A DNA stretch of 64,000 nucleotides, from positions 62,001 through 126,000 of the forward strand of contig CASGAM010000023.1 in NCBI GenBank assembly GCA_949299545.1, given 5' to 3'. The position numbers and the translations under genes were made by a program. The notes beneath the pieces are model-generated. The model did not search any database and was not told the DNA's origin. It saw only the letters and a list, made by a program, of their open reading frames with translations. This DNA comes from an uncultured Prevotellaceae bacterium (lineage in GTDB: Bacteria; Bacteroidota; Bacteroidia; Bacteroidales; Bacteroidaceae). Position 1 is the stretch's first letter. Each line of letters begins with the position of its first letter. Positions 15,722 to 57,594 of the stretch are shown piece after piece.

Positions 15722-16243
15722 GTGAAATCAGACCATAAAATCCAGCTGTTCACTGACTGTTATGTCAAAAACAAAAAAAGTGTCATGAACTTTATAGCCG
15801 CAAGAATCACGAATAGCGAACATGCTGAAGATCTCACCCAAGATGTGTTTATACGCCTATGGAAACACATAGATGCTTTAAAACCGGAAACGGCCAATGC
15901 ACTCATTTATAAAATCGCCCATAACATTATTATTGACAGGATAAGACACTACCAGAAAGAAACTGATTTTGCCAATTATCTACAATATACGCATGACCTG
16001 CAGAACAACTCTACTGAAGATAACAACAACTATAAGGAGTTGAACAGTTTACACAAGCAGGCCATCAAGACTCTTCCAGAATATCACCAGACAATCTACC
16101 TCATGAACTTCAACAAAGGAATGAAACAAGTTGACATTGCACAAGAGCTTGACATTTCAGCTAAATGTGTATATAATACCATTGCACATGCAAAAAGAAT
16201 TATCCGTAAACATATCAGACACAATTATAGCCCCTCTTTATAA
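15722..16243 (+). CDS. ECF-family RNA polymerase sigma factor, no adjacent anti-sigma gene
   Basis: 173 residues from a GTG. An in-frame TAA at 15707 excludes a longer start. Sigma-70 region 2 is visible (AEDLTQDVFIRLWKHIDALK, ALIYKIAHNIIIDRIRHYQKE), as is region 4 with a helix-turn-helix (MNFNKGMKQVDIAQELDISAKCVYNTIAHAKRIIRKHI). Bacteroidetes ECF factors of this type usually sit beside a FecR anti-sigma and a SusC gene. Here neither is adjacent, and the gene points at the 3' end of the SusCD operon. Target promoters are unknown. Confidence 0.9.
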   Translation: MKSDHKIQLFTDCYVKNKKSVMNFIAARITNSEHAEDLTQDVFIRLWKHIDALKPETANALIYKIAHNIIIDRIRHYQKETDFANYLQYTHDLQNNSTEDNNNYKELNSLHKQAIKTLPEYHQTIYLMNFNKGMKQVDIAQELDISAKCVYNTIAHAKRIIRKHIRHNYSPSL

Positions 16244-16379: not shown

Positions 16380-16862
16380 TTAATGGATCATTCGGACACC
16401 GTTTACAATATCATCGGGAACAGCAGAAACGCGAGTATATACAGACACATCTCCTATGTTATCCTTTCTGCTCCATTTCATAGTATTTTCTGTCATCTCA
16501 GTTACAATATAATCACCCCACTCCACATCTGAATAGTCATAGATTCCACTCAATAATATACCGTAGTCGTCATCTTCAGTCAACGTAAAAGAACCTGTTG
16601 TATGATGTGAGTACATACTGCCAACATTATCATACATCTCAAACGTATGTTCTTTTCTATTGAAAGTAATATAAACATACGTCTCTCCATCTTTTTCGAT
16701 CCATTCCTGACCATTCCAATCTGAAAGGCGCCACGTTCCATTAAGAGAAGCATAATTCACTTCGAGATATGCAACAGCTGACTTTTCTTCAGTCTTGTCA
16801 CAAGAGGTGACAGACAGAAACATAACACATAACAAAGCGAATTTAAGAATCTGTTTTATCAT
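16380..16862 (-). CDS. Small lipoprotein, lipocalin-like fold suspected
   Basis: 160 residues. Lipoprotein signal MIKQILKFALLCVMFLSVTSC followed by DKTEEK, an acidic tail compatible with surface export. The rest is beta-rich with NGTWRLSDWNGQEW near the N-terminus, the look of lipocalin-like domains (LNGTWxL). This is an inference from pattern only. It is the last gene of the 15-kb SusCD operon, 41 nt after the DUF1573 gene. Confidence 0.75.
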   Translation of the reverse strand: MIKQILKFALLCVMFLSVTSCDKTEEKSAVAYLEVNYASLNGTWRLSDWNGQEWIEKDGETYVYITFNRKEHTFEMYDNVGSMYSHHTTGSFTLTEDDDYGILLSGIYDYSDVEWGDYIVTEMTENTMKWSRKDNIGDVSVYTRVSAVPDDIVNGVRMIH

Positions 16863-16903
16863 AAGACTATTTTTTATTTATCTAATTGTTTTTAATACGA
16901 TTT

Positions 16904-17728
16904 TTATTGTCCAACCACGCTACTAACACTCACTCGTAACATCCGTTCTGAAGGCCGTACATCCAGTCCATCTAAAAGGATGCGGCTTATAATCGCCTTA
17001 CCATTCTCAGATAGAACTGATTTATTAACCTTAAGCGTTATAACAATTTCGCCGGTTTGTGATGGTTCCAAAGTCTCTGGTTCAGTTTTAACATCAAGAT
17101 AGTCAGGTATAAAGCCTTTGACTGGACGTATATGCAATGGAGATGAACCAGCATTCGCACAAGGTATTCGCTCACTGCGTTGTTGCCCCTCGCTTACATT
17201 CTCAAAATCAACGCTCTTACGCCGAAGTCTCAGTGTACCCATGGAATAGCGATAATCTTTCCATAATGAAGCAGAGGGAGTTACACTCCCTGTTAACGAA
17301 AGTGCAGCTATTGGCCTATTGGAATCTGCATCAGCATAAACAAACACACGTACATATAGTTTTCCCGGCTGGTTGGCTGGATTAAATGTTACATGTATCT
17401 GCGTTGTATCACCAGGTTCAAGAAGTTTTTTTCCTGATGTCGCCGTTGTACAACCACACGTTGTCCTCAATTTCTCAATAGCAACTTGATGCTTACTGAC
17501 ATTCTGAGCCACAAAAGTACGTGTAACCGAACCACTGTCTTCTGACAGCTCACCGAGAGAATATTCAGTAGTTTCAAAACGCAAAACACTATCTGCCACG
17601 GCGCTTATCTCTGGATTCATGACAGCCAAGAGCTGTGACGCCGTAGGAATCGTCTGCGCGACAACCTGCAAAGACATTCCGAACAATGCCGCTGTAACAC
17701 TACCTAACAAGCAGAACCGTTTGTTCAT
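16904..17728 (-). CDS. Secreted DUF1573 (ASPM/SPD-2/Hydin-type Ig fold) protein
   Basis: 274 residues with a type-I signal peptide ending VVAQ. The first domain (about 50-140) has the DUF1573 hallmarks FETTEYSLGELSEDSGSV and TTCGCTTA followed by LEPGDTTQIHVTFN. A second Ig-like domain with the same plan covers 160-270. DUF1573 proteins are abundant in Bacteroidetes envelopes, with no assigned activity. It follows the protease gene by 30 nt and so belongs to the operon. Confidence 0.85.
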   Translation of the reverse strand: MNKRFCLLGSVTAALFGMSLQVVAQTIPTASQLLAVMNPEISAVADSVLRFETTEYSLGELSEDSGSVTRTFVAQNVSKHQVAIEKLRTTCGCTTATSGKKLLEPGDTTQIHVTFNPANQPGKLYVRVFVYADADSNRPIAALSLTGSVTPSASLWKDYRYSMGTLRLRRKSVDFENVSEGQQRSERIPCANAGSSPLHIRPVKGFIPDYLDVKTEPETLEPSQTGEIVITLKVNKSVLSENGKAIISRILLDGLDVRPSERMLRVSVSSVVGQ

Positions 17729-17758
17729 ACTACTTCACATTTTGGGGGTGAAACGACA

Positions 17759-19804
17759 TCACATCCAGCCGTTACCTGTTGACAGGCTTACTGTTATAGT
17801 AAAGTCATGTTTATTTCCGTCACTATCTTCTACTGATGCTTTAGTTACTCCCATTTTAACACCTTTTACAGTCAAACAATTGTTAGCCAACTCAACAGCA
17901 GCAATGCTGCTATCTATAACATCAAAATCAGTTGCCGTTACCCCTTCTTTGAAAATACGTTCAAACTTTATCGTATATGTTCCGTCAACAGCAACACTCA
18001 CATTGGGTACACGCATAGGTTGCGCTCCATATGCACCATTTTCTATATTCTCCAACAATTTGTTTGCATCTACCAAACCACCTATTTTATTCCTATAATT
18101 AGACAAACCGACTTTAATGTGTATGGATGACTCCGGAAAGTCAGACCAGCCATACCAGTAGGATTTCTCACCTTTAAGCGTATCTTCTAAAGATATAACT
18201 GACTCAAGCAACATTTGCCTAAAATCTTCTGCACGGTAATGCTTACGTAACTTTGCAGCATAGGAGAGTCCCAAAGCAGCAACACCTGAAACATAAGGAC
18301 AGGCCATAGAAGTTCCTTCCATATAACCATATCCACTCATACCATCTGCAACAGGATCACCACCTTCTATCGCCATTGTTGGCATTGTTGAATAGATCAT
18401 GGCCTCATTATTGCAGAATGCCGACAAGTCACCTCCAGGCGCGGTTATCATATTCTTGTTTCCTGATGGAGTTGCATAATTTGAATATGAAGCCGGTAAT
18501 CCATCCGGACCTACAGATGCCACACATACATAATCTTTATAGGCACCTGGATAGGCAGAGAGCGGGGCATATTCATTACCCGCCGCAAAAATAACTAAAC
18601 CTCCCTCAATCGTTCCATTCGGATCTCCGGCATAATTGATAAAATAATCAAAGACTTCTTTCTCAAGAGTACAATTCTCCACGTACTCTTCGTCCGTCAA
18701 AAAACCTGGCACATAATTATTAGGGTTCGCATAGCCAGAATTATATCCCCAGCTACACTGTAATATAACAGCTCCATTGTCAGCGGCATATTTAACAGCC
18801 TTTGCCTCTTGAAGCATTGTCGCTCCACTGTTTCCTGAGAATATCTGCAAAGACATAATCTTAACACCTTCCTGAGTATCAGAACCACCTGCCACTCCAT
18901 AAACACCATTACCATCCTTATTGTCAGCTGCAATTATTCCAGCGACATGGGTTCCATGACCTACATCGTTAATATCGTTATAAGTAATCAAACCGCTGTT
19001 AGTTGCAAAATTATATCCATAATAATCACCGGCATAACCATTTCCATCGTGGTCTTCATTGCTCCCATGCTCTTCACCGGTATTTCTCCACATGTTTGCC
19101 TGCAAGTCCACATGATTGTACATAACGCCCTCATCCATTACAGCAACAATAATAGAAGGATCGCCAGTACATTTCTTGGTTGCTTCTTTCCAATTTATGT
19201 CCTTTCCTTTAATAGCTGCTGCTGTTGACGGGGCCACTCCATTAATTGAACCATTATTAATCAGCGCCCACTGCTTAGACAATCCATCATTTTCTGCTGA
19301 CAAAGTCATAGCTGCTGGTTTTGCCTTGACATCAGTACGATATGAACGTTTGATTTCACGGTTATATTCAACTGTCGCAACTTCAGCAAGTGACGCCATA
19401 TCATTAGCTACCTTCTCCAAATCAGCATCTTTATCGAAACGTACGATATACCAAAGATGTAAACCTGTCTTGCGTGTTCTATCTTCGTTGCGTTTATCAA
19501 CTGGAAACACCCTTTCAAAAGTATAACTGCCTGCAATATTAAGTATCTGATCAACAGAAGGTATATTAGAACGCGTTCTGACGCCCTTAACACTAATCAC
19601 ATTCGCCGCCTCCAGAATATCTTCTACTTCCGGTTTGAACTTGATAAACAACTCTCCGTTTACAGCGTCATCTGGCAACTTGACAACATGAGATACATTG
19701 CTTTCATCTACAACATCTTCTAAATATTCATTATTATCTGAACATGAAAATAACGATACACAAAAGATAAACACGAGAGCTATATTAAGTTTTCTCATTT
19801 TCAT
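17759..19804 (-). CDS. S8 family (subtilisin) serine protease lipoprotein
   Basis: 681 residues from ATG 19804 (MKMRKLNIALVFIFCVSLFSC), preceded by AGGA. A longer frame would overlap the previous gene. After the lipobox comes SDNNEYLED, then a propeptide-like domain (about 45-165; NGELFIKFKPEV). The catalytic domain has a complete triad, Asp in VAVMDEGV, His in GHGTHVAGI and Ser in GTSMACPYVSG, with oxyanion Asn in FAAGNE. A C-terminal beta domain follows (YTIKFERIFKEGVTATDF). It is probably tethered at the outer membrane. Its place in a SusCD operon without glycosidases suggests it cuts proteins into importable peptides. Confidence 0.92.
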   Translation of the reverse strand: MKMRKLNIALVFIFCVSLFSCSDNNEYLEDVVDESNVSHVVKLPDDAVNGELFIKFKPEVEDILEAANVISVKGVRTRSNIPSVDQILNIAGSYTFERVFPVDKRNEDRTRKTGLHLWYIVRFDKDADLEKVANDMASLAEVATVEYNREIKRSYRTDVKAKPAAMTLSAENDGLSKQWALINNGSINGVAPSTAAAIKGKDINWKEATKKCTGDPSIIVAVMDEGVMYNHVDLQANMWRNTGEEHGSNEDHDGNGYAGDYYGYNFATNSGLITYNDINDVGHGTHVAGIIAADNKDGNGVYGVAGGSDTQEGVKIMSLQIFSGNSGATMLQEAKAVKYAADNGAVILQCSWGYNSGYANPNNYVPGFLTDEEYVENCTLEKEVFDYFINYAGDPNGTIEGGLVIFAAGNEYAPLSAYPGAYKDYVCVASVGPDGLPASYSNYATPSGNKNMITAPGGDLSAFCNNEAMIYSTMPTMAIEGGDPVADGMSGYGYMEGTSMACPYVSGVAALGLSYAAKLRKHYRAEDFRQMLLESVISLEDTLKGEKSYWYGWSDFPESSIHIKVGLSNYRNKIGGLVDANKLLENIENGAYGAQPMRVPNVSVAVDGTYTIKFERIFKEGVTATDFDVIDSSIAAVELANNCLTVKGVKMGVTKASVEDSDGNKHDFTITVSLSTGNGWM

Positions 19805-19850
19805 AAACATCCTATTTTTACTGAATAAATTTAAAACTGTCAGTATAATA

Positions 19851-21623
19851 CTATTCTTCATAATTCGGGTTACGCCACGGATAAAGTTCATAATAACTCT
19901 TTTCCTTGTTTACAGCAGAGTAATTGCTCAAACTGACTGGTTCACTATTAAATCCTGCTTTTTGTCCCAAAGAATTGATAGCATCGGTTTCCTGTGTAAA
20001 TATCATAGAGAACGGATTCCAGAATGCTAAATAGGGATGATACAAGATCCAGTTAGGCAGATCTCCTGTCAAGAAGCAAAGATTTATGGAAAGTACCTTC
20101 ATCTTCGGCCATACCTTAGGAGTGCCAATCAAAGAATCTTTAGCTGTAACAATAGTATCAATAAACAGTTTTTCTTCATCTGTCGTTGCAAAATTCTTAT
20201 CAAAGTCTTTTTCTTCGTAGAATTCTGTCCATTCTGGATCAGCCTTCAATTCTTCATTTGATGGTAATTCCCCGTCTAAAAGATTAAGAGCTAAGGATAG
20301 TTCTTCCAAAGTATCCCATTGCATCAGCCTCTTGAAAAAAGTCTTATTGACTTTATCAGAAGGCGTGAATCCATCACCATACCCTGTAAACCATCTAAAA
20401 CCAATACTGTCTTTGGTTATCTCGTTTAAATTCTTTGTTGTATCGTATCTACTTATCTTATTAAGTCTCAGGACCTTCAGCTTACTGAAATTTTCTTTTG
20501 TAAGACATTCCAATCCGTCGTACTCAAAATTATTGCTACTCAAATCCAATTTCTCAAGACTCTTACCCAATAACATAAAATTATCCGGTAAAGAAACCAA
20601 ACCATAAGCACTGATTGTCAACTCCTTGAGATTTCCATACTGAGCCAGTTCGGTAATCTCATTGCCCAAAGCTATACTCTTTATAAAGGTATTTGAGTTT
20701 CCTGTAAAGGTTATTGAACGAGCTGTTTTCAGATATTTAACCTGATAAGGAATCGTTTCCTTTGTTTCAAATAGTCTGAATGCAACAGATTTCAAACGAC
20801 CTAACAACTTCGGATTATCCTTAACTTCTTTATCCGTAGCTTCCCACAGTTCGACACCATCCCAATACATCATGTTCTCACTTGCATCCCACTTAAAGAT
20901 ACCATTCATAGCATTATAAATCGCTAAAACTGCAAGAGAATCACCGGCTCTGTCATCCGTAATTTTCGGTGCGGCCTTTTGTTGCACGTTAATTTTGACT
21001 GGCTCACCTTCGTCAGGCGTAAAAATTATCTTTGCAAAACGAGGCGTGCTTTCTGTATTCACGATCCAATCAAAACGGGAAACAATAGTCCTTGGGCGGT
21101 CACCATAATCCAATTCAATGTCTGTCTTCTTATAGGTCAACCATTTACTCTCAGACTCAATAGTTACATCAAATTGAACATTTGTCGTTAATTTTATTTC
21201 AAGAACACGTTTATCTATCTCAGCAGAATTTTCCACAAATAAAGTATCTTCAGCATTCTCTATATAAAGCCCCTTCTCATAACCGGCCTGCACTACATGA
21301 ACACGCTTTGAGGTACCGGTTGAGGAATAAAAGAAGATATCCGTATTCCTATATTCAGCAATCACAGACGAATCTACCTTTATTTCACATATTGCAGGAC
21401 CGAAACCGGTTGCAGGTGTAACCGTCAACCACGGTTCCTCAACACTGGTGTACCAGCTAACGTCCCCTGAAACCTCCACTAAAGCTAAGCCGCCATCAGC
21501 CCCCATCGCTATATCCTCAACATTGACAGATAAATCTGCAATCACAGGCTCATCTTCTTTACAAGAAATGGCCAACAAGCTATATGCCAATACTACCGAA
21601 AAATAAACTATAATTCTTTTCAT
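19851..21623 (-). CDS. Lipoprotein with BACON-like and leucine-rich repeats
   Basis: 590 residues from ATG 21623 (MKRIIVYFSVVLAYSLLAISC). The cysteine is followed by KEDEP, close to the lipoprotein surface-export signal. Residues about 25-110 resemble a BACON domain (GDVSWYTSVEEPWLTVTPATG), with a second beta domain to about 215. The C-terminal half has leucine-rich units (LKELTISAYGLVSLPDNF, LEKLDLSSNNFEY, LKVLRLNKI, LEELSLALNLLDGELP). It is likely a surface binding protein and, with its upstream neighbour, forms a tandem LRR pair between the SusCD genes and the protease. Confidence 0.82.
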   Translation of the reverse strand: MKRIIVYFSVVLAYSLLAISCKEDEPVIADLSVNVEDIAMGADGGLALVEVSGDVSWYTSVEEPWLTVTPATGFGPAICEIKVDSSVIAEYRNTDIFFYSSTGTSKRVHVVQAGYEKGLYIENAEDTLFVENSAEIDKRVLEIKLTTNVQFDVTIESESKWLTYKKTDIELDYGDRPRTIVSRFDWIVNTESTPRFAKIIFTPDEGEPVKINVQQKAAPKITDDRAGDSLAVLAIYNAMNGIFKWDASENMMYWDGVELWEATDKEVKDNPKLLGRLKSVAFRLFETKETIPYQVKYLKTARSITFTGNSNTFIKSIALGNEITELAQYGNLKELTISAYGLVSLPDNFMLLGKSLEKLDLSSNNFEYDGLECLTKENFSKLKVLRLNKISRYDTTKNLNEITKDSIGFRWFTGYGDGFTPSDKVNKTFFKRLMQWDTLEELSLALNLLDGELPSNEELKADPEWTEFYEEKDFDKNFATTDEEKLFIDTIVTAKDSLIGTPKVWPKMKVLSINLCFLTGDLPNWILYHPYLAFWNPFSMIFTQETDAINSLGQKAGFNSEPVSLSNYSAVNKEKSYYELYPWRNPNYEE

Positions 21624-21668
21624 CTTGGTTATCGTAATTTGCATAAACACCCAATACTTTAATTAATT

Positions 21669-24356
21669 TCAATCAAGATCCAAAGCATCACACCCTCTAA
21701 TGTCCTGCGTTCTGTCATAAATCAACATATAGATGCCTGACTTGATATAAGCACATACATCCGAAACATTTAAAATTAGATTTGGATTGTCACTGACATC
21801 CAAAGTATATATCAGATAAGAGATTGTTTCTGTTTCAGGAACCTTTCCAATATTATTTCCGCCAAGGAACAACGCCCTCAATCCAATATGTTCAGCAATA
21901 CCCTCAGGCCATTCTTTATAAACTCTGTTACCATCATCATCTCTCTGGTTACGCAATGCCAACACTGTCAAGTAAGATATATTAGCAGCTCCCCACGGGA
22001 AACCTGTCAAACGGTTACCACTCAGATCCAAACCATAAAGATAAGGCAAAACATGCCCATTAAACGCATCCGGTAACTTAGACAACTTATTATAAGTCAA
22101 ATCAAGCGTTGTTAAAAGATAAGTCTTATCACCTTTCAAATCTTCATCTTCAAATGTACTGATCTTATTCGCGCTAAGATTAAGAACAGTCAACGGCGAA
22201 CCTTTCTCAAACAGAACTCCAGGGAAATGTTCCAATTTATTACCTGCCAATGACAAATTGCTGGTATTGATTCCTTCAAAGTCTTTAAGACCATCATCAC
22301 CTATCTCGTTATATGAGAAATCTACTGAGGCCATAGTATAGATTGAATTGACATCAAATATGTTTGGTAACTTCTTCAGTTTATTATGAGAGAAGGACAA
22401 ATTCTCGACATCTTCCATACCACAGAATACCTCTTTCGCACCATTCTCATCAGAAATTGCCATAGTTTCAATTTCCTCAATCTGATTATAATCAAATGCT
22501 GCTTGCACAAGATTCACATCCGGCCCAAAAGCTGGTAATTTTTTTAATTTATTATAAACACAGTCTATTTTCCCCAGTTTTGTCAGTTGATTGATATTGT
22601 CTGGAAGTTCTTCTATATTATTATGACCTAAATATAATATCTGAATCTTATCTTTTGATTTTCCATTTGCCAAAGCTCTCAATCCTTCCGTAAACTCCGC
22701 GCCACTCATCTGCTTGTTCATCGCCAGATTAATCTGTATCAGCTCTTTCATCTGTGCAATTACTGTCGGGAATTTTTTCATGTAAGGACAGTTATATATC
22801 TCAAGATCGGTACATGATTCCAATCCGGCCATTCCCTGATATTCAGGATTCTCAGTTGAAGCCTCCGGTAATGTTTCGATTGGTGCATTGGCAATATACA
22901 AAACCTCTAACTTCTTTAATTTTCCAATAGCCGGACTAATGCCATCTATACCATTGGTCAGATCTCCCCATACTACATCTTTTGGTGAGACTGACATTCC
23001 CTTTATTGCGGAATTATAATCACCTTTTATTTTCATTCCCAACTTCAGAGGCTCGGAAAGATCTTCTCGAATATCATGCATAACAAATCTATTCATATAA
23101 TCGTCACGCATATTCTTAAGCTGAGTTTCTGTCAATTGTCCTTTTAAACATGAAGGATCAATCGGATTATTAGGATCAACCGTCTCGTTTTTGATAAAGT
23201 CGTTGTGTGTTCCCAATGCCAAAGTCTTTAATTCACTTAATTGTCCTATTGCATCGGGAATCTTACCTTTTGCACCGAAATCACCTAAAGACAAAGATGA
23301 GACACGACCATTCTTATCAAGCACGACCCCTGGTTGCTCACCCCACATGTCAATATCTTTCTCAAAATCCCAATTTGTACCTGCCGGGTAACTTTCTCCT
23401 TTATAAGACCAGTTTGGACCATCCAATGCCTGCCATATAGCCTTAAGTGCCAAATAGTCTTGAATATTTGCAGCCGTCTCAAGTAACGTAATGGGCACAT
23501 CGACTTTCACTATTTCATTGTCTTTCACCGTAAACTCTGCAACACCATCCACTTCATCTGCAAAATACTGCAAAGTTCCGTTATTTTGCTTGGCCTCGTA
23601 AGAAATAATTCTATATGTACCTGCTTTTAAAGAAATTAAAGAATCAATTTCACCGTATGAAGTCAATTTGCCCTCACCATCTCCCTTATAATCTTCTGTG
23701 TATTCAACTTCCAAGTCTTTTATATCAGGCAAGTTTGTCTGCGTAGCAACATCCAGAATAGTCAAACTTATTTCGTCAATACTACTGAAAGGATATGCTT
23801 CATCCTTATTGCCTTCCGCAGTTTTCGTTCCTGCCAACAAGTTTTTAACCAACTTAAAATTAACGAATCCTCTTGGCTGAACATCCACCAGCAGATCTTT
23901 GACAACCAAGCCTCCGCTCGTCACAGTGAATTTCATCGTTTCCGTAGGACTACCGACAAATATCTGATCTTCTACCTTTCCATAAAGATAATAAGCGAGT
24001 ACCGTATAAGTCCCTTCTGCCAAGTTCAGTTTATCGCTCCGCAAACCAAATTCTGCATTTTCCGCATCGTATGCATTCAACAACATCGTTTGAGAGAAAG
24101 GCTTTGTCTCACCTTCTTTCAACAAAGAGACCTTCATCTTCTTCGCCTCATTCAGAAAATCGAGCTGGTTATTGCCTGCACGCAAAGATACTCGTTTGTC
24201 ATACGATGCACTTTTGTATAACTTAAACTGGACATAACCGCCTTGGCTATTGGTAAAGTTTGTTTCATCATCAGTACAACCAATGGCCATAACGGAAAGC
24301 CCTAACAATAACAGACATCCTTTCAGCAGCTTATAAATGTTCATGGATATATTCAT
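21669..24356 (-). CDS. Large leucine-rich-repeat lipoprotein (DUF4458-like N-terminus)
   Basis: 895 residues. Lipobox LSVMAIGC near residue 27, then TDDETN. Two beta-sandwich domains with the plan of DUF4458 (assigned from memory) fill about 40-290. An ALKAIWQALDGPNW segment near 305 starts a region like other bacterial LRR proteins. About ten LRR units follow to the C-terminus (LYLGHNNIEELPDNINQLT, LSFSHNKLKKLPNIF, LDLTYNKLSKLPDAF, LDLSGNRLTGFPW). LRRs are protein-binding scaffolds, which fits a protein substrate. A later ATG at 24344 is also possible. Confidence 0.83.
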   Translation of the reverse strand: MNISMNIYKLLKGCLLLLGLSVMAIGCTDDETNFTNSQGGYVQFKLYKSASYDKRVSLRAGNNQLDFLNEAKKMKVSLLKEGETKPFSQTMLLNAYDAENAEFGLRSDKLNLAEGTYTVLAYYLYGKVEDQIFVGSPTETMKFTVTSGGLVVKDLLVDVQPRGFVNFKLVKNLLAGTKTAEGNKDEAYPFSSIDEISLTILDVATQTNLPDIKDLEVEYTEDYKGDGEGKLTSYGEIDSLISLKAGTYRIISYEAKQNNGTLQYFADEVDGVAEFTVKDNEIVKVDVPITLLETAANIQDYLALKAIWQALDGPNWSYKGESYPAGTNWDFEKDIDMWGEQPGVVLDKNGRVSSLSLGDFGAKGKIPDAIGQLSELKTLALGTHNDFIKNETVDPNNPIDPSCLKGQLTETQLKNMRDDYMNRFVMHDIREDLSEPLKLGMKIKGDYNSAIKGMSVSPKDVVWGDLTNGIDGISPAIGKLKKLEVLYIANAPIETLPEASTENPEYQGMAGLESCTDLEIYNCPYMKKFPTVIAQMKELIQINLAMNKQMSGAEFTEGLRALANGKSKDKIQILYLGHNNIEELPDNINQLTKLGKIDCVYNKLKKLPAFGPDVNLVQAAFDYNQIEEIETMAISDENGAKEVFCGMEDVENLSFSHNKLKKLPNIFDVNSIYTMASVDFSYNEIGDDGLKDFEGINTSNLSLAGNKLEHFPGVLFEKGSPLTVLNLSANKISTFEDEDLKGDKTYLLTTLDLTYNKLSKLPDAFNGHVLPYLYGLDLSGNRLTGFPWGAANISYLTVLALRNQRDDDGNRVYKEWPEGIAEHIGLRALFLGGNNIGKVPETETISYLIYTLDVSDNPNLILNVSDVCAYIKSGIYMLIYDRTQDIRGCDALDLD

Positions 24357-24431
24357 CGTTAAAATCGATATAATAAAATTCTATTTCTTTTTATGTCGGC
24401 TTGCCAACTGTCCTCTAACGAGTTATAGTTA

Positions 24432-24461
24432 TGAGGGTGTGCCATGAGAGGCACACCCTCA
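24432..24461 (-). promoter_or_regulatory. Intercistronic hairpin inside the SusCD operon
   Basis: A perfect 12-bp stem: TGAGGGTGTGCC (24432-24443) pairs with 24450-24461 around a 6-nt loop. It lies in the 119-nt gap between the BACON-type gene and the large LRR gene, the widest gap in the operon. There is no T-tract on the minus strand, so a full terminator is unlikely. An attenuating or 3'-protecting stem is more likely. Confidence 0.65.
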
Positions 24462-24475
24462 CCTTTTATAATAAA

Positions 24476-26050
24476 TTATTCTACAACAACAATCAATGCT
24501 TTCTTATTCATGCTGCTTGCATCTTTAAATATGATGAAACAGTTTTCCTGAATAGAATGATAATTAAGACCCATTCCACCTGACATTAAAGATGTCTTTT
24601 CAAATCCCTCGAAAAGCGGCTCCATTGTTTTCAATGAGGTAGCAAGGAAATCACCTGCCCAATTTTTCCAGTCGGATATCATAGGATCAATTATTAATGA
24701 AGCTCCGGCAGACGTACGTACAGTGTATATGTCTTCTGCTGGAACACCATATTCACCTGAGATAAAGCTACCGATTTCGGTTCCCTCTATAACCAATCCG
24801 CCATCCCCTGACTCAAAGTCAACACTTTCATACATACCATTGACAATGCTCATACCTGCACCAGCAGCTGCACCCTCTTGTTTAAACGCCATGATAACGT
24901 AATTGAAATATTCGTCATTGAGATCATCACCCTTTGAATTAGTCATTACCATATTCAAATCGCCATTACTTTCCTCCAAAGCCTTCTCATAAACATCAGT
25001 AGGAAGTGCAAGAATATAAGCAAGGCGTTCCTGAGCTGAGCTGTTTGCCTGAACAGATTCTATTTCCACATTACCTTGAGCATCATCAACGACCTTCATA
25101 GAAGCAAACTCATCAACATAATTCAACCATTCGCCGCTCTGTTCGAACTGAAGAATCTTATACTGGTTATCATTTGCATAAACATTGAATGAAAATGGGA
25201 ACGGAATATCCTCTGCTTCACCATCACCGCCCATAATAGACTCTTTATGGAAAGACAAACCATCCGCTGAAATTATCCACCAGTAAGCACCATCTATACC
25301 ATCAACCGCAATCTCGCCATCCTGCATGCCTGCAAATTCAACATATACAGGAACCTTTATATCTGTACCCTGTACACAGAAATACAGAGTATCAAACTGT
25401 GCAGAAGTCCAATACTGTGTCTCTACAGTAAACGTAATGGTATTTTCCACGTTAGCTTCCGTAGAAATCGGAAGTGCTTTATCTGTAGTCAACCATGACG
25501 GACAAGACTCGAGTGTCCAGTCAAAATTCGCCTTGAAAGTAAAATAGCCTGACGCACCATTTGCATTATGCTTGATTTCTACTATATTGGAATCGTTATA
25601 AACCACACCGGATGCATTCATGACAACAGGTGTATCACCTAAACGGACAATGCGTGCAATGATTTTTTCTTCAGTTCCTTCAATCAACTGAATGTCTGCC
25701 GTATCATTGAAAACTTTCATTTCGTCATCAGTAATCGTAAGCGTCACACTCTGTTCGCCGGCGGCACCATTGTACACAATTGCTGCATTAGGAAATACAC
25801 ACCAAGATTTTGATGACCGCATCACCCAATCACTGTTTGCTGTAAACTGCAAATCTACTACAGTATCTTTCAACACCACAAAAAATTCAGTCTGAACCGA
25901 ATCTACGACTCCACCTGTAGAGTCGCTGATATCCAGCGAGTCATTACCTTCACTTCCACTTGTTAACTGGCTATCCTCTTCACATGAGAATAAACCTAAA
26001 AGAGCAACAAACAATACTGAAAGTTGCATGAATAAATTAAACCTTCTCAT
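24476..26050 (-). CDS. BACON-type surface lipoprotein
   Basis: 524 residues. Lipobox FVALLGLFSC followed by EEDSQL. Two BACON-like repeats are visible at about 55-135 (FTANSDWVMRSSKSW) and 165-250 (FKANFDWTLESCPSWL). A C-terminal half of about 270 residues follows that I do not recognise. BACON domains are linker or binding modules common in SusCD loci. The gene follows the Calx-beta-like gene by 44 nt. Confidence 0.8.
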   Translation of the reverse strand: MRRFNLFMQLSVLFVALLGLFSCEEDSQLTSGSEGNDSLDISDSTGGVVDSVQTEFFVVLKDTVVDLQFTANSDWVMRSSKSWCVFPNAAIVYNGAAGEQSVTLTITDDEMKVFNDTADIQLIEGTEEKIIARIVRLGDTPVVMNASGVVYNDSNIVEIKHNANGASGYFTFKANFDWTLESCPSWLTTDKALPISTEANVENTITFTVETQYWTSAQFDTLYFCVQGTDIKVPVYVEFAGMQDGEIAVDGIDGAYWWIISADGLSFHKESIMGGDGEAEDIPFPFSFNVYANDNQYKILQFEQSGEWLNYVDEFASMKVVDDAQGNVEIESVQANSSAQERLAYILALPTDVYEKALEESNGDLNMVMTNSKGDDLNDEYFNYVIMAFKQEGAAAGAGMSIVNGMYESVDFESGDGGLVIEGTEIGSFISGEYGVPAEDIYTVRTSAGASLIIDPMISDWKNWAGDFLATSLKTMEPLFEGFEKTSLMSGGMGLNYHSIQENCFIIFKDASSMNKKALIVVVE

Positions 26051-26094
26051 ACATTATTTTTTAAAGTTAATAAATTATCATTCTTATCCTTAAA

Positions 26095-26979
26095 TCAATA
26101 TCCCTGCCTCTTTAAATATTCGTATTCGTCATCCGAAATCCATTCTACCACATTTGCATAAGTTCCTACCGTTCCCACTTCATTGACATAAAACGTCATA
26201 TACTGGAAAAAGAAACCTTGACAAACATTAAAGAAAGATGTCACATTTGCAGGTTGGGACACTCTTAATTTATTATCTCCCCAAATTGCACCTTGGAATG
26301 GCTCTGATGCCAAAGCCACAATCTGAGGGTCCATCTCCAATTTCGGTTCAAGCGGATCGTCCGTATTAAAGCGCACTTTTATATCATAACCGTCATAGAG
26401 AAAGTCTTTCAATATAATACCATTCTTCTCTTCCGGATCACGCAACGTTTCTATCAGTCGCAAATCTGTCGTCGGCATATATTCTGTAAAGAACGTAGAA
26501 GTAAGAACAGCATGCCCTACAAAACGTTCGATATCAAACGGACAAACTTTAACCAAGACAACCTTGGTATTGTCACCGTAAAGTGACCATACTTTATCTT
26601 TTGATACAACCAGTCGCAAAGAAATGCCAATAGAATCAGTCTCCTCAAAATCATCGAAATGCCCGCGTATCTTTACCGCACCCACTGTTTCTCCAGCCTT
26701 TATCGTTACGGTATTGGAAGCCAAATCATAATGCACACCTTCAATGGCATTGCTTTCTTTGTCAATAAGTTCTACTGCAAACGTGCGGTCATAATCACAA
26801 ACCGTCGTGGCTACCACCGGAATTTCATGATAAGTCTCTGCATCCTGAATGGCAATAGTCTGCAAAGAATCCGAAAACATGATATAATCCGGCCCCTCAT
26901 AAGTTATTTTATCAGCTTCGCAAGCTACTAAAAAGAATGTTGCGCAAGACAGTAATACGACAGATAAATACTTGTTCAT
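26095..26979 (-). CDS. Calx-beta-like lipoprotein directly after SusD
   Basis: 294 residues. Lipobox SCATFFLVAC followed by EADKIT. The N-terminal half has the Calx-beta-like signature seen in DUF4843/DUF4984-type proteins (IEGVHYDLASNTVTIKAGETV, then VKIRGHFDD). The C-terminal part (about 160-294) is unrecognised. Proteins in this slot are commonly surface lipoproteins associated with their SusCD complex. Gap to susD is 28 nt. Confidence 0.78.
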   Translation of the reverse strand: MNKYLSVVLLSCATFFLVACEADKITYEGPDYIMFSDSLQTIAIQDAETYHEIPVVATTVCDYDRTFAVELIDKESNAIEGVHYDLASNTVTIKAGETVGAVKIRGHFDDFEETDSIGISLRLVVSKDKVWSLYGDNTKVVLVKVCPFDIERFVGHAVLTSTFFTEYMPTTDLRLIETLRDPEEKNGIILKDFLYDGYDIKVRFNTDDPLEPKLEMDPQIVALASEPFQGAIWGDNKLRVSQPANVTSFFNVCQGFFFQYMTFYVNEVGTVGTYANVVEWISDDEYEYLKRQGY

Positions 26980-27007
26980 TATATAATTAAGATAAGTTCA
27001 ACATCCG

Positions 27008-28525
27008 TTAATTACTCTCATTTGGTTGAATATCGGCATCCGGCAGATCAATCTCATGCTGTGGTATCGGCCATACAAACAATGGATTGTCGGCTGATAT
27101 CTTCAGGCTACTTCCATCCGTTACGCTTTCCAACTGCGGTTTTCTTTCAAAACCTTTTCCCCATCTCTTAAGGTCATTCAGCCTGAAACCTTCCATATAA
27201 AGTTCGCGTACACGTTCGTTGCTGATCTCGTCAAGCCAGTTTTCTTCGCCCAACATGGCATTACCATAAGAAGAATAGCGCGCCTTGCGTAAAGTAGTCA
27301 GATCCTCTGCCGCACTTCCGTAATTCTTCAACCTGCAATACGCTTCTGCCCTTATAAGATATTGTTCTGACAAACGGAATACCTTTGGCATGCTGACATG
27401 CAGAATGTTATAACTATTCATAAAATCCTGATTGCCGTGATATTTGATCAGCAATGGCCAAGTCAGTCCGTGACTGAATCCTGTCGTCACCTGACCGAAA
27501 AACGCATTATATCTTAAATCGTTAGCTTCATATAATGCCAAGACCCATGAAGCGGGAACATAATCGGGTCTGTACGACACATAATCATAATTCAAGAATA
27601 CCTGTCCGAGACGCCCACCGTAAGAAGTTGAAGTAAAGCCGACTTTCCAAATGATTTCTGTCGACTGGTCGTACTGCCACATGTAATCATAATATGAATA
27701 ATTACCAGTATAAATGGTATTGACATCAGACAGAATGTACTTGTCACTCTCAATCACCTCAGTGGCACATTCTTCAGCTTTTTCCCAATCTTGCATATAA
27801 AGATATACTCGTGCCTGCAATGCCTTCACGGCATAATATGAGAAATACGGTGTATTGTAAAGAACATCATCTTCCTCATCCTCATCCAAGGCGAGCGCCT
27901 CTTCTGCTTTCTCCAGATCTTTCAACACAAAATCATAAGAATCATAGAGCGAAGAACGTTCCAGTTTTCCAGCATTTGTATATTTTGATACAAGTACCAC
28001 ACCAAGTTCATTTTTGGCGGTTTCAGGGTCATAGGCTTTGCAGAAACACTTTATCAATTCCGAATAAGCAAGCGCACGGGCAAAATAAACCTCCCCCTTA
28101 TATCCCTGTAATTTCTCGTAAGCATCGTCATCGGTCAAAGTATTCTCCCATTTTCCGATTTGCTCAAAAAAATAGTTGCAGTCACCAATGACTTTATAAA
28201 GGGCAGCATAAACAGCCTCAATATCCTCATTTGTCGGCTTGATACTCCACCGCCATACATCTCCGAAAACGTTTGTATAACCATTAACGGCATATACCAA
28301 ATCAGCCTGAATGTCCGGCAACAATGTGAGGTTGCCGCTATAAAGGCTGGAACTCTTATAGTCTGCATAAATTCCGATAACTGCCTGGTTGGCCTCTTCC
28401 ACAGTCGTAATGGCCCGATTGGAAGGTATAGCGTCTGACGGATACTTATCCAAACAAGAAGTACACAACCAGAGGGAAATCACGCCCAATATGTATGCTT
28501 TTGTTTTAACCAATTTCATATTCAT
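27008..28525 (-). CDS. SusD/RagB-family nutrient-binding lipoprotein
   Basis: 505 residues. Lipobox VISLWLCTSC near residue 24, followed by LDKYPSD. Helical TPR-like core, with family segments such as NERVRELYMEGFRLNDLKRWG near 430 and the C-terminal FVWPIPQHEIDLPDADIQPN. SusD proteins cap the SusC channel and deliver ligand. Here the ligand is probably a peptide, judged from the operon. It starts 3 nt after the SusC stop. Confidence 0.95.
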   Translation of the reverse strand: MNMKLVKTKAYILGVISLWLCTSCLDKYPSDAIPSNRAITTVEEANQAVIGIYADYKSSSLYSGNLTLLPDIQADLVYAVNGYTNVFGDVWRWSIKPTNEDIEAVYAALYKVIGDCNYFFEQIGKWENTLTDDDAYEKLQGYKGEVYFARALAYSELIKCFCKAYDPETAKNELGVVLVSKYTNAGKLERSSLYDSYDFVLKDLEKAEEALALDEDEEDDVLYNTPYFSYYAVKALQARVYLYMQDWEKAEECATEVIESDKYILSDVNTIYTGNYSYYDYMWQYDQSTEIIWKVGFTSTSYGGRLGQVFLNYDYVSYRPDYVPASWVLALYEANDLRYNAFFGQVTTGFSHGLTWPLLIKYHGNQDFMNSYNILHVSMPKVFRLSEQYLIRAEAYCRLKNYGSAAEDLTTLRKARYSSYGNAMLGEENWLDEISNERVRELYMEGFRLNDLKRWGKGFERKPQLESVTDGSSLKISADNPLFVWPIPQHEIDLPDADIQPNESN

Positions 28526-28528
28526 TGT

Positions 28529-31462
28529 TTAAAAATTAAGTTCGACACCGAATGTAAATTGCCTTGTAGACGGATATTGCGCACGGTAAATATTGCTGCT
28601 CACTTCCGGATCCAATCCGGAGAAAGCCGTAAAGGTCAGCAAATTCTGTCCCTGTGCAAAGACACGCACTTTTTCAAGGAAATGCGTCTTAGCCAACCAA
28701 CGCTGAGGCAAGCTATAAGCCAGCACCACATTCTTAAGTCTCAGGAATGAAGCATCCTCCAAATAATGTGTATCAAACTGGGGCGTTACGCCATGACGCG
28801 GTATATCCGTTATGTCACCCGGTTTTTTCCAGCGGTCGTACAACAAACGTTTTGATTGGTTGTAAGCCGTATACAAACCGTTACTCTCATCCATAATACG
28901 GTCATTATTATATAACCAACGGTCTGCCATCCAACTGAAATGTGCGGTCAGAGACAATCCCTTCCATGACAATGAGGTACCAAATCCTCCTTCCCACGGC
29001 GCAATATAGCTCTTTCCTTCAATGTAAACGCGATCATCCTCGCTGAACTCATTTGTGATCTCACCATCCTTTGTATACCAAAGCGCATCACCGTTGGCCG
29101 GATTAACCCCTGCATAACGCACCAGATAGAAGCCGCTGACTGATTTTCCTACTGCATAGAGCGTAGCATTGTTATCAACATACTCCTCTATACCGTTATA
29201 CAATTCGGTCAACTTATTCTTATTGTAAGATACATTGGCATACAACGACCATGAAAAATCTTTAAAGCGCAAAACCTCTGCATCGGCTGACAATTCAAAA
29301 CCACGGTTCACCATCGCACCTACATTATCCCAATAGACTCCGTAGCCACCGTCTGCGTAGCTCTGTGGAACCTGCATCAGCATGTTGGAGGTGTACTTGT
29401 TGTAAAACTCCGCGGTAAGGTTAAAACGATTAAGGAAACCTAAACGCAAACCGACATTCGTCGTCCACAACTTCTCCCATGTCAGGTCTTCATTGCCGCG
29501 GGTAACCGGAACGATACCGACATCACCCATATAATTGGAATCGCCATAAACCAACGCCATGTGGGCATAGTTTGAAATAGAAGAGTTTCCGGATGTTCCT
29601 GTACTGAACGTCACCTGGGCGTTGGAAAGCCATTCCACATCTTCCATGAAATGCTCACGCTTCATATCCCACATCGTACCAACTGACCAGAAAGTAGCCC
29701 AGCGGTTGTTTTTTCCAAAACGTGAAGAGGCGTCTGAACGCAAAGAGAAATCAGCATAGTAGCGGTTCTCATAATCATATTCCGCACGACCGAAAAAAGA
29801 AAGGAAACCGTATGATGTTGTGGCGTCATTCCATGAACTTGCGAAAGAACCTGAAGAAAGGTTTGTCAGCACATCATTATTCTGCCCCTCGGTTACCACC
29901 TGGAAAGACTCATAGTTATAATTGATTCCCTCCTGACCAACGAGAAAATTGAAATGATGTTTGTCATCAACATCAAACACATAATTGGCCGTATTGGTTA
30001 CTGAGAGTGTCAGACCGTCTGATGATGCACGGCCGGCAGAACCCATCCCGTTATTATTGGCGTAACTCGGGAATGAGCGCATGAAAGAAGTGGAGTGATC
30101 ATAATCCACACCGAAAAGAGACTTGATTGACAATCCTTTAATCGGAGTCACTTCCGCATATAAGGAAGAAATGACCTTATATGAATTATGTCGTACCGGA
30201 TTTTCTTCCATCCATTCCAACGGGTTCAGACCGGTACCTTTCCATGATCCGTCATTAGTAGAAGCCAATGTGCCGTCCTCATTATAGGGATTCCAATAAG
30301 GCAACATGAAACGTGAAGCGGAAATAGGTGAATAGAGCGCGTACTCGCCGTCTTCAGCCTGCTCTATGTCTTCATAAGCCAACAAAGTGTTGGTACCCAT
30401 TTTCAACCAACTTTTAGCTCGGTGTTCTACATTGGCACGCATGTTATAACGTCTGAACATTGAGCCTATTGTAATACCGTCCTGATCAAAGAAACCACCG
30501 GAAACGAAATAATTCGTTTTATCAGTAGCACCATTCACCGAAACCTCATAGCTCTGCATTGGCGCATTGTTTTTAAACACCTCTTCCAGCCAGTTGACAT
30601 CGGTATTCATCACCTTCTTATAATAGTCATCGCCCAAATCCTGGCCGATTTCTTTCTCATATTTAATACGCTCTTCCGTATTCATCAGATCCCAATTGTC
30701 ACCGGCCAGCTGCGAAATACCCCATTGGCCCGTAAAAGCAACCTTCGCACTACCGATATTACGACCGCGTTTGGTCGTGATAACCACGACACCATTGGCA
30801 GCCCGCGCACCGTAAATAGAGGTGGATGAAGCATCCTTCAATACAGATATTGATTCTATATCATTAGGGTTGATAGCATTGAAACTGGAAGATTCAATAG
30901 GCACACCGTCAAGTATGAACAAAGGAGTTGTTCCGGAATTGATAGAGTTCGTACCACGTATCTGAAAAGTGGCAGCCCGACTCGGCTCACCAGATGCAGA
31001 AACGACGGTAAGTCCCGGAGCCTTTCCCTGCAACGCCTGGTCAAAACTGGCTGTCGGCACGTCGGCAACTTCATCAGAACCTATCGTTGAGACTGAACCG
31101 GCTACTGTTCCCTTCTTACGTACACCGTATGCCACCACAACCACCTCGTCGATTAACTTTGTGTCATCCTTGAGTGTAATATTCAATGTCTTGGTATTTT
31201 CGTCCACAGTCTTCTCCTGCGTTTCCATACCCATAAACGTAAAGGTCAGCGTAGCTTTCCCACCGTCAATCTTAATCTCATAAAAACCGTCTAAATCCGT
31301 CACAACGCCATTCATAGTGCCTTTCTGACGAACAGCCACTCCCATCAACGGTTCCTTATCCGCATCGGAGATGACTTGCCCTTTCACGGTGTAAACCTGT
31401 GCCACCGCAGACTGTATGCCGCATATCGCGAAAAGCACCCATAAAAGACTCCATTTTTTCAT
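28529..31462 (-). CDS. SusC/RagA-family TonB-linked outer membrane transporter
   Basis: 977 residues. Signal peptide ending SAVAQ, then a carboxypeptidase-regulatory-like domain (about 25-100; VKGQVISDADKEPLMGVAV). The TonB-box/plug junction is DEVVVVAYGVRKKGTVAGSV, and the plug carries the SusC hallmark VLKDASSTSIYGARAANGV. A 22-strand barrel runs to the C-terminal phenylalanine (FTFGVELNF). Length is typical. It is the first gene of the operon, with a consensus promoter upstream. Confidence 0.96.
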   Translation of the reverse strand: MKKWSLLWVLFAICGIQSAVAQVYTVKGQVISDADKEPLMGVAVRQKGTMNGVVTDLDGFYEIKIDGGKATLTFTFMGMETQEKTVDENTKTLNITLKDDTKLIDEVVVVAYGVRKKGTVAGSVSTIGSDEVADVPTASFDQALQGKAPGLTVVSASGEPSRAATFQIRGTNSINSGTTPLFILDGVPIESSSFNAINPNDIESISVLKDASSTSIYGARAANGVVVITTKRGRNIGSAKVAFTGQWGISQLAGDNWDLMNTEERIKYEKEIGQDLGDDYYKKVMNTDVNWLEEVFKNNAPMQSYEVSVNGATDKTNYFVSGGFFDQDGITIGSMFRRYNMRANVEHRAKSWLKMGTNTLLAYEDIEQAEDGEYALYSPISASRFMLPYWNPYNEDGTLASTNDGSWKGTGLNPLEWMEENPVRHNSYKVISSLYAEVTPIKGLSIKSLFGVDYDHSTSFMRSFPSYANNNGMGSAGRASSDGLTLSVTNTANYVFDVDDKHHFNFLVGQEGINYNYESFQVVTEGQNNDVLTNLSSGSFASSWNDATTSYGFLSFFGRAEYDYENRYYADFSLRSDASSRFGKNNRWATFWSVGTMWDMKREHFMEDVEWLSNAQVTFSTGTSGNSSISNYAHMALVYGDSNYMGDVGIVPVTRGNEDLTWEKLWTTNVGLRLGFLNRFNLTAEFYNKYTSNMLMQVPQSYADGGYGVYWDNVGAMVNRGFELSADAEVLRFKDFSWSLYANVSYNKNKLTELYNGIEEYVDNNATLYAVGKSVSGFYLVRYAGVNPANGDALWYTKDGEITNEFSEDDRVYIEGKSYIAPWEGGFGTSLSWKGLSLTAHFSWMADRWLYNNDRIMDESNGLYTAYNQSKRLLYDRWKKPGDITDIPRHGVTPQFDTHYLEDASFLRLKNVVLAYSLPQRWLAKTHFLEKVRVFAQGQNLLTFTAFSGLDPEVSSNIYRAQYPSTRQFTFGVELNF

Positions 31463-31623: not shown

Positions 31624-31655
31624 CAAAGCTAACATTTTTTTATTAAAAAGCCAAA
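31624..31655 (-). promoter_or_regulatory. Promoter of the SusCD-protease operon
   Basis: Minus strand: TTTG (31655 to 31652), 20 nt, TAGCTTTG (31631 to 31624), a consensus Bacteroides promoter. Predicted leader of about 155 nt before susC. A standard promoter argues that the vegetative sigma factor, not the nearby ECF factor, reads it. Confidence 0.7.
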
Positions 31656-33271: not shown

Positions 33272-33308
33272 CTTTCTATTATTATTTTGGTTCTTATATA
33301 ATTATAAC

Positions 33309-49831: not shown

Positions 49832-49866
49832 TAAGTTTAAAAATTATTTTTCAATATTCTTATTTT

Positions 49867-51033: not shown

Positions 51034-51071
51034 GCACTACTACGAATAATATTTTGGCGATATTTTATTCA

Positions 51072-51839: not shown

Positions 51840-51883
51840 ATAGTTCAACTATTACATTATATTCCGAGCTTTTTTAACAATAA

Positions 51884-54221: not shown

Positions 54222-54224
54222 TTC

Positions 54225-55025: not shown

Positions 55026-55127
55026 TCTATATAAACAAGGCTATTTAAGCATACTGTTTCAAAAACATGTACACAAGCAGCCTTAACTTAAACATAATTA
55101 ACCTTTAATCATATAAGGATCAATTTA

Positions 55128-55794: not shown

Positions 55795-55859
55795 TTATAA
55801 CTTTTATAATAACACTATTAATTATCACAGCCATTATCGTTTAACTTTTTAACTTATTG

Positions 55860-56546: not shown

Positions 56547-56596
56547 ATAAATATTTTTTCGTTATACATTAAGCAAACTTTTCGATGCAATAATTT

Positions 56597-57526: not shown

Positions 57527-57594
57527 ATCTTTTTCTTTATAACAGGGTCAAGTGTTCCAATATATATAAATAAAATATAGAAACGTAATGAACT

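What the first reader, a model, noticed from the sequence alone, without database searches (positions are those of the whole stretch)
16380..31462. A SusCD operon built for protein or peptide, not glycan
Nine same-strand genes follow one consensus promoter: SusC, SusD, Calx-beta-like, BACON-type, two LRR lipoproteins, a complete-triad S8 protease lipoprotein, DUF1573 and a small lipoprotein. No glycosidase, lyase, sulfatase or hybrid two-component gene is present. LRR scaffolds bind proteins and the protease would supply peptides. From memory, the B. thetaiotaomicron SusCD complex BT2263-2264, with partner lipoproteins BT2261-2262, was crystallised with bound peptide (Glenwright et al. 2017). 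This locus may be a relative, but the LRR/protease part looks like an undescribed extension.
Basis: partly seen in the sequence, partly recalled or inferred. Interest (0 to 1): 0.75.

Follow-up and report, generated by a model that had tools for sequence, protein, structure and literature searches.

The report
Bacterial operon for eating proteins
A nine-gene block in a gut bacterium, kept together in dozens of related species, looks like a surface machine that grabs and cuts proteins and imports the pieces, where its best-studied cousins mostly handle sugars; its function has not been tested.

Summary
In detail: nine same-strand genes (16380-31462) encode SusC, SusD, a DUF4984 lipoprotein, a BACON-like Ig-string lipoprotein, two leucine-rich-repeat (LRR) lipoproteins, an intact S8 subtilase lipoprotein, DUF1573 and a lipocalin-like lipoprotein, with no glycan-degrading gene. 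The nearest solved SusC is the peptide importer RagA (604 bits), not BT2264 (153 bits); BT2263 was not found. All 60 family SusCs carry the RagA peptide-contact element NNDR; 0 of 25 alignable control SusCs do. The LRR/protease part is not a local extension: of 67 Bacteroidales loci fetched with DUF4984, 57 have DNA beyond the second LRR gene and 55 of those have the protease next; the other two belong to a sister S8-less type. By published annotation B. thetaiotaomicron has at least five of the genes in the same order (BT0207-08, BT0211-13). So this is a recurrent module whose function I found undescribed; the window's copy was probably acquired from a Phocaeicola-like donor. Most likely it captures proteins, cuts them with the tethered subtilase and imports oligopeptides (about 0.68). 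Transport and substrate were not tested. Side finding: a strong hairpin separates the transport half from the LRR/protease half.

The parts
28529..31462 (-). SusC/RagA-type TonB-dependent transporter with CarboxypepD_reg-like N-terminal extension, no STN domain hit; NNDR element at residues 852-855
   Evidence: TIGR04056 823 bits; RagA best solved match; NNDR in 60 of 60 family rows
27008..28525 (-). SusD/RagB lid lipoprotein
   Evidence: PF14322, PF07980; RagB among the best solved matches
26095..26979 (-). DUF4984 lipoprotein, Calx-beta-like domain plus second beta domain, third gene after SusC-SusD
   Evidence: PF16372 196 bits; AlphaFold2 mean pLDDT 90.5; Foldseek to Calx-beta domains and Bacteroides proteins
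24476..26050 (-). BACON-like lipoprotein predicted as Ig-like domains; fastest-diverging gene of the operon (median pairwise identity 21%)
   Evidence: sub-threshold BACON_2; divergence; mean pLDDT 82
24432..24461 (-). stem-loop between genes 4 and 5; possible RNA processing, stability or attenuation element
   Evidence: z -6.0; only copy of this hairpin pattern in the genome; hairpin counts per junction
21669..24356 (-). LRR lipoprotein 1: DUF4458 + LRR_10 + LRR
   Evidence: solved homologues 4ecn, 4eco
19851..21650 (-). LRR lipoprotein 2: BACON + weak LRR hits
17759..19804 (-). S8 subtilase lipoprotein with PF16361 N-terminal domain and diverged C-terminal part; triad D253, H315, S528 (numbered in the 710-residue ORF that starts at 19891)
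16904..17728 (-). DUF1573 (HYDIN/ASH-type Ig domains), with signal peptide by eye, no lipobox
16380..16862 (-). Lipocalin_4 small lipoprotein, last gene of the operon
31624..31654 (-). Bacteroidetes-type promoter match, 192 bases upstream of the susC ATG
   Evidence: 20 of 48 upstream regions match the strict pattern, mean 2.5 in single-base shuffles; the nearest relatives L053-L057 do not match

Best explanation
The operon encodes a protein-utilisation machine of the SusCD class. Step 1 (inferred): the Ig-type and LRR lipoproteins capture proteins at the cell surface; the BACON-like gene 4, which diverges fastest, is the likely specificity part. Step 2 (inferred; catalytic residues shown): the tethered S8 subtilase cuts the captured protein beside the transporter. 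Step 3 (inferred from RagA kinship): the RagA-like barrel and SusD lid close on oligopeptides and import them by TonB. DUF1573 (exported, no lipobox) and the lipocalin-like lipoprotein are accessory, role unknown. It stands to protein as a classical polysaccharide-utilisation locus stands to glycan, with the subtilase in the place of the surface endo-glycanase. Shown: gene content, order, conservation and intact catalytic residues. Not shown: surface location, complex formation, substrate and transport.
For: Nearest solved SusC is RagA (604 bits; dextran SusC 8AA4 442; levan 309; BT2264 153), and no control SusC reaches RagA's score (best of 30: 418). The RagA peptide-contact region, described as absent from SusC (PMC11817032 section 2.4), reads NNDR in RagA and in 60 of 60 family SusCs, but in 0 of 25 alignable controls (5 more could not be aligned there; one control has NNDR elsewhere). 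The S8 gene follows LRR2 directly in 55 of 55 S8 loci, and is present in 55 of 57 loci with room for it. D, H, S and N are kept in 54 of 54 aligned S8 rows, window included. S8 has a lipobox by a permissive regex in 53 of 53, and acidic residues are common after the Cys, resembling the Bacteroides surface-export signal (recalled). No CAZyme, sulfatase or lyase hit in the nine genes. DUF1573 and lipocalin accompany S8 in 31 of 31 loci with room.
Against: The substrate is inferred from kinship and gene content. For SusD the lead of RagB is nil: 74.5 bits against 74.2 for 3myv of unassigned substrate, and by profile 3kez and 3mcx outrank it. The dextran SusC is also a fairly close relative (442 bits). 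NNDR may mark ancestry, not substrate. The B. thetaiotaomicron S8 mutant (BT_0212) kept EspB-cleaving activity, which its authors think may be redundancy among 35 putative secreted proteases (PMC6282197), so no substrate is known. LRRs can bind things other than nutrient proteins. In the S8-less type the SusCD, DUF4984 and LRR parts exist without this protease, so the transporter does not strictly need it.
Confidence: 0.68

Rival explanations
1. Glycoprotein locus: the subtilase trims the protein part of mucin- or plant-type glycoproteins, and the SusCD imports glycopeptides or glycans whose sugars are removed by enzymes encoded elsewhere.
For: Most characterised SusCD systems import glycans, and BACON-type domains are often linked to carbohydrate contexts (both recalled); the dextran SusC is the second-nearest kind of solved relative. 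PUL enzymes can lie elsewhere in the genome.
Against: No carbohydrate-active hit among the nine; no upstream gene cluster is seen in more than 6 of 54 loci, 7 counting the window (downstream not examined); nearest solved SusC is a peptide importer.
Confidence: 0.15
2. Not a nutrient system: the LRR, Ig and subtilase lipoproteins serve adhesion, host-protein processing or competition, and the SusCD takes up a signal or bacteriocin-like peptide.
For: LRR and Ig scaffolds are common in adhesins (recalled); the operon's DUF4984 is patchy (45 of 399 family genomes, one to three matches each).
Against: SusC/SusD are the most conserved genes of the unit (medians 62% and 59% to the window), and the gene layout is that of a nutrient-uptake operon.
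Confidence: 0.1
3. The subtilase is a processing enzyme for its own operon partners (for instance trimming the BACON-like or LRR proteins) and does not digest nutrients.
For: Strict linkage to the operon (55 of 55) and a conserved N-terminal domain; lipoprotein, probably on the same surface.
Against: The S8-less type keeps SusC, SusD, DUF4984 and LRR genes, and in L117 a BACON-domain gene, without it; no common cleavage site was sought.
Confidence: 0.08
4. Iron- or haemoprotein-scavenging operon: surface proteolysis of host iron proteins with uptake of the freed cofactor or peptide.
For: BT0207-08 and BT0211-13 appear in an iron transcriptome table of B. thetaiotaomicron (PMC10434189).
Against: They stand among genes listed as lower in low iron, with P values of 0.084-0.57, so neither direction nor significance fits iron uptake.
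Confidence: 0.04

Closest known systems
RagAB of Porphyromonas gingivalis (6sli, 6sm3)
   Same: nearest solved SusC; NNDR element shared; oligopeptide importer
   Different: RagAB is fed by gingipains encoded elsewhere, and I know of no DUF4984, LRR or subtilase gene in its operon (both recalled); 604 bits is homology, not orthology
B. thetaiotaomicron BT0206-BT0213 region
   Same: published annotation gives SusD, DUF4984 (BT0207-08) then BACON, S8, DUF1573 (BT0211-13): the same order (PMC10434189 passages); 4ecn, the best LRR1 match, is BT_0210 by recall
   Different: another species; sequence not fetched here; BT0206, BT0209 and BT0210 assigned by inference; function not determined in the papers found
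B. thetaiotaomicron BT2261-2264 (5fq6)
   Same: SusCD with bound peptides (PMC7782687 passages) and two partner lipoproteins
   Different: SusC only 153 bits; SusD and the lipoproteins show no significant sequence match here
Dextran and levan utilisomes (8aa4, 5t3r)
   Same: SusCD plus surface binding protein plus surface endo-acting enzyme
   Different: enzyme is a glycoside hydrolase and substrate a glycan; here a subtilase
S8-less SusCD-DUF4984-LRR operons (L117 Paraprevotella, L119)
   Same: SusC 53-55%, SusD 42-44%, LRR1 30%, LRR2 28-29% to the window; SusC in a sister clade
   Different: S8, DUF1573 and lipocalin replaced by a third LRR lipoprotein and a large protein, 913 residues with a type IX sorting tail in L117
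Paraprevotella clara 00502-00509 trypsin-degrading locus (PMC9477747 passages)
   Same: probably the window's genus (inferred); surface proteins that deal with a protein substrate
   Different: said to be in all Paraprevotella strains tested there, whereas close kin of this operon's SusC occur in 3 of 18 genus genomes

Membership tests
SusCD (Sus-like) nutrient-uptake operon | adjacent susC-susD pair with curated family scores | tested here: met
   susD follows susC within -74 to 143 bases in 64 of 64 loci that hold both
SusCD (Sus-like) nutrient-uptake operon | further surface lipoproteins downstream | tested here: met
   lipobox by permissive regex: DUF4984 64 of 65, BACON-like 57 of 59, LRR1 57 of 60, LRR2 54 of 57, S8 53 of 53, lipocalin 26 of 35, DUF1573 6 of 46; surface location itself not testable
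Polysaccharide utilisation locus | carbohydrate-active enzyme in the locus | tested here: not met
   no such hit in nine genes
RagAB-type peptide importer | SusC closer to RagA than to glycan SusCs | tested here: met
   604 against 442 (dextran) and 309 (levan) bits; best of 30 controls 418
RagAB-type peptide importer | SusD closest to RagB | tested here: inconclusive
   RagB 74.5 bits, 3myv 74.2; RagB behind 3kez and 3mcx by profile
RagAB-type peptide importer | RagA N893-F898 contact region | tested here: met
   NNDR in 60 of 60, in 0 of 25 alignable controls; position matched by my own count
RagAB-type peptide importer | oligopeptide bound and transported | not testable with these tools
   needs structure or uptake assay
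BT2261-2264 peptide SusCD | SusC and SusD best match BT2264/BT2263 | tested here: not met
BT2261-2264 peptide SusCD | partner lipoproteins related to BT2261/BT2262 | tested here: not met
   no significant hit for DUF4984 or the BACON-like profile, and no 5fq7/5fq8 chain in the top 50 of Foldseek; that those entries hold the two lipoproteins is recalled
S8 subtilase | Asp/His/Ser triad and oxyanion Asn | tested here: met
   54 of 54 rows (window and 53 loci; two cut-off copies of 55 not aligned); activity not testable here
DUF4458-LRR lipoprotein (4ecn type) | PF14660 + PF18805 + LRRs | tested here: met

The most novel reading that the evidence does not exclude
Gut Bacteroidales carry dedicated protein-utilisation loci with an interchangeable front end: a fixed SusCD-DUF4984-Ig-LRR chassis takes either its own subtilase set (S8, DUF1573, lipocalin) or a type-IX-secreted set. 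The set forms a surface protein utilisome whose fast-evolving fourth lipoprotein chooses the target protein, and an RNA hairpin after gene 4 sets the ratio of transporter to capture/protease parts.
Probability: 0.3. Interest if true: 0.72.

Novelty: new variant of a known kind. Interest (0 to 1): 0.5.

Why it matters
SusCD loci are studied mostly as glycan systems. A conserved SusCD operon with its own surface subtilase, apparently present in the model B. thetaiotaomicron, would make it directly testable whether gut Bacteroidales have dedicated protein-utilisation loci parallel to their polysaccharide ones. That bears on protein fermentation and microbial protease activity in the gut.

Tried and rejected
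BT2261-2264 kinship: rejected by score ranking. Iron uptake: the only expression data found point the other way and are not significant. The passages I read do not name its inner genes. Conserved neighbourhood or linked regulator: no upstream cluster in more than 6 of 54 loci, 7 counting the window (only upstream genes clustered, 14 largest clusters printed). Control by the nearby ECF sigma factor: SusC has no STN domain hit, and the ECF gene is in none of the 14 clusters printed. Rfam: no hit in the window at gathering scores. Terminator-like and sigma-70 sites: about as many as in shuffles. A broad locus-tag search listed 30 of 371 papers, mostly unrelated. Foldseek on the BACON-like model gave only generic Ig strings in its top 50.
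Full report
What is there. Nine minus-strand genes from 31462 down to 16380 form one tight block. In order: SusC, SusD, DUF4984 lipoprotein, BACON-like lipoprotein, DUF4458-LRR lipoprotein, BACON-LRR lipoprotein, S8 subtilase lipoprotein, DUF1573 and Lipocalin_4 lipoprotein. A Bacteroidetes-type promoter match lies at 31654-31624. The strict pattern is met upstream of susC in 20 of 48 regions examined (window included), mean 2.5 in single-base shuffles, but not in the nearest relatives L053-L057; start codons there were chosen by a rule of thumb. No carbohydrate-active enzyme is among the nine. The SusC has the carboxypeptidase-like N-terminal extension and no STN domain hit, so no anti-sigma contact is expected (inference).

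How far it is conserved. A scan of one genome per species with a DUF4984 alignment gave 67 loci. All nine genes are found in 40 of 67, in the same order in 39; L109 swaps the last two. Most of the other 27 are cut by the end of the DNA held; L117 and L119 are not, and L115 and L116 are short and unclear. Among the 57 loci with more than 1.5 kb after LRR2, 55 have S8; the two without are L117 and L119. S8 follows LRR2 directly in 55 of 55, and DUF1573 and lipocalin are present in 31 of 31 with more than 1.4 kb after S8. The hosts include Bacteroides, Phocaeicola, Alistipes, unnamed Bacteroidales and one Carboxylicivirga. These counts start from DUF4984, so they say how often DUF4984 loci carry the protease, not how common the protease is. 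DUF4984 itself is patchy: 45 of 399 family genomes, some of the matches weak, and 6 of 295 in the order.

B. thetaiotaomicron. PMC10434189 (passages) lists BT0207-08 as SusD and DUF4984 and BT0211-13 as BACON, S8 and DUF1573: the same order as here. BT0206, 0209 and 0210 as SusC, BACON-like and LRR1 is inference; that 4ecn is BT_0210 is recalled. The genes stand among those lower under iron depletion, with P from 0.084 to 0.57. PMC6282197 (passages) made a BT_0212 mutant, which did not lose EspB cleavage. Searches of locus tags, domain names and topic words showed no functional study of the operon among the papers listed; some searches listed only part of what they matched, and the library lacks most subscription papers.

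Substrate evidence. Against solved structures the window SusC scores 604 bits with RagA, 442 with the dextran SusC (8AA4, identified in PMC7618045 passages), 309 with the levan SusC and 153 with BT2264. Thirty control SusCs score at most 418: seven others of the own genome and one from each of 23 other genomes of the family; seven further own-genome loci were dropped for lacking an open stretch over 880 residues. SusD is inconclusive: RagB leads 3myv by 0.3 bits as a single sequence and is behind 3kez and 3mcx by profile, whose substrates the table does not give; no 5fq6-8 chain is in either list. PMC11817032 (section 2.4 read whole) names RagA N893-F898 (also written N893-Y898) as a substrate-binding region absent from SusC and possibly behind the change from sugar to protein. 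By my count that is NNDRYF; the window has NNDRIM, all 60 family rows have NNDR (three of them S8-less or unclear), and none of the 25 alignable controls does (five could not be aligned there, one has NNDR elsewhere). This supports peptide transport but could reflect ancestry alone.

Protease. The S8 protein has a PF16361 N-terminal domain, an intact triad in 54 of 54 aligned rows, a lipobox by permissive regex in 53 of 53, and acidic residues after the cysteine in many rows. The catalytic domain is its most conserved part (median 56% to the window; N-terminal domain 44, C-terminal part 34). The closest solved subtilase is a weak match (70 bits) and gives no substrate.

Binding parts. Median identity to the window over 34 loci with nine complete genes: SusC 62, SusD 59, DUF4984 47, S8 46, LRR1 43, LRR2 40, lipocalin 36, DUF1573 30, BACON-like 21. 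Gene 4 thus diverges most, as expected of the part that meets changing ligands (inference). Predicted folds: DUF4984 is Calx-beta-like plus a second beta domain; its best Foldseek matches are Bacteroides proteins such as 3p02 and 4qni (whole-length TM scores about 0.3, so only the Calx-beta domain match, up to 0.75 by target length, is firm). Gene 4 is a string of Ig-like domains with no informative match in the top 50.

The S8-less type. L117 (Paraprevotella; same sequence as L051) and L119 keep SusC, SusD, DUF4984 and both LRR genes, then have a third LRR lipoprotein and a relative of the 913-residue protein instead of S8, DUF1573 and lipocalin. L117 has a BACON-domain gene in the fourth place, and its 913-residue protein has a type IX sorting tail (L051); in L119 the fourth place was not assigned and the tail not tested. 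L116 ends in a third-LRR match, so its S8 status is open. SusCs of L116, L117 and L119 form one clade beside the 57 others (support 89 and 86, below the 95 mark), not all of which reach far enough to show S8. So the front end was probably exchanged once, direction unknown. The tree was quick, with long outgroup branches, and supports nothing finer.

Origin of the window's copy. Its nearest relatives are the Phocaeicola and Bacteroidaceae loci L053-L055 (SusC 73-75%). Close SusC kin occur in 3 of 18 genomes of its own genus, and a strong S8 match only in the window's. Horizontal acquisition is the likely reading; incomplete assemblies could hide copies.

A hairpin inside the operon. Between genes 4 and 5 the window has a 13-pair stem-loop; the 122-base stretch folds 18 kcal/mol better than the mean of its shuffles (z -6.0), and the hairpin pattern occurs once in the genome. 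In a scan of the 110 bases after each gene, hairpins of at least 8 pairs occur after gene 4 in 14 of 60 cases. After SusC, SusD, DUF4984, LRR1, LRR2 and DUF1573 together they occur in 7 of 354 (Fisher p about 2e-8). Two junctions were left out of that pool: after S8 they occur in 10 of 54, nearly as often as after gene 4, so gene 4 is not unique in this; after the last gene in 7 of 35, where terminators are expected. The comparison was made after seeing the window's hairpin, related loci are not independent, and many of the hairpins may lie inside the next reading frame. Clear intergenic hairpins are seen in the window, L098 (by folding only), L102 and L105, with differing sequences, though L098, L102 and L105 belong to one clade; the window's close relatives L053-L055 have gaps of 15 bases or less there. 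They lack a strong T run, so RNA processing or stability is likelier than termination (inference).

Verdict. The finding is real and the peptide reading is reasonable; the named relative is wrong, and the extension is an old standard part. Novelty lies in a widespread SusCD operon, functionally unstudied as far as I could find, with a protease in the enzyme's place.

Noticed in passing
L101:3-5098 and L105:2730-5147 (minus strand, beside the main operon): Head-to-head partial second copies without susC: the later half of SusD (from about residue 253), DUF4984 and BACON-like (plus LRR1 in L101), in inverted orientation to the main operon, with 72-83% complementary arms. Could be a silent cassette for inversion or gene conversion.
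   Followed up: partly
24432-24461: Strong stem-loop between gene 4 and gene 5; hairpins of other sequence at the same junction in L098, L102 and L105.
   Followed up: partly
32372-34706: Upstream of the operon: diaminopimelate dehydrogenase and a C1-family peptidase (PF03051, 464 bits) with an apparent signal peptide, same strand; the peptidase cluster was seen upstream in only 2 of 54 other loci.
   Followed up: partly
15722-16243: ECF sigma factor gene converging on the end of the operon; no anti-sigma gene seen beside it and no STN domain hit in the operon's SusC.
   Followed up: no
46001-58000: Block of low G+C (0.29-0.36) with mostly same-strand genes, against 0.43-0.58 around it; possibly an acquired island.
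   Followed up: no
L051:1754-4495: A 913-residue protein with a type IX sorting tail takes the place of S8 in the Paraprevotella-type operon; a 46% relative lies at the edge of L109, on the other strand, upstream of an S8-type operon.
   Followed up: partly
L057, L064, L076: Bacteroides finegoldii DSM 17565 holds three copies of the nine-gene operon.
   Followed up: no
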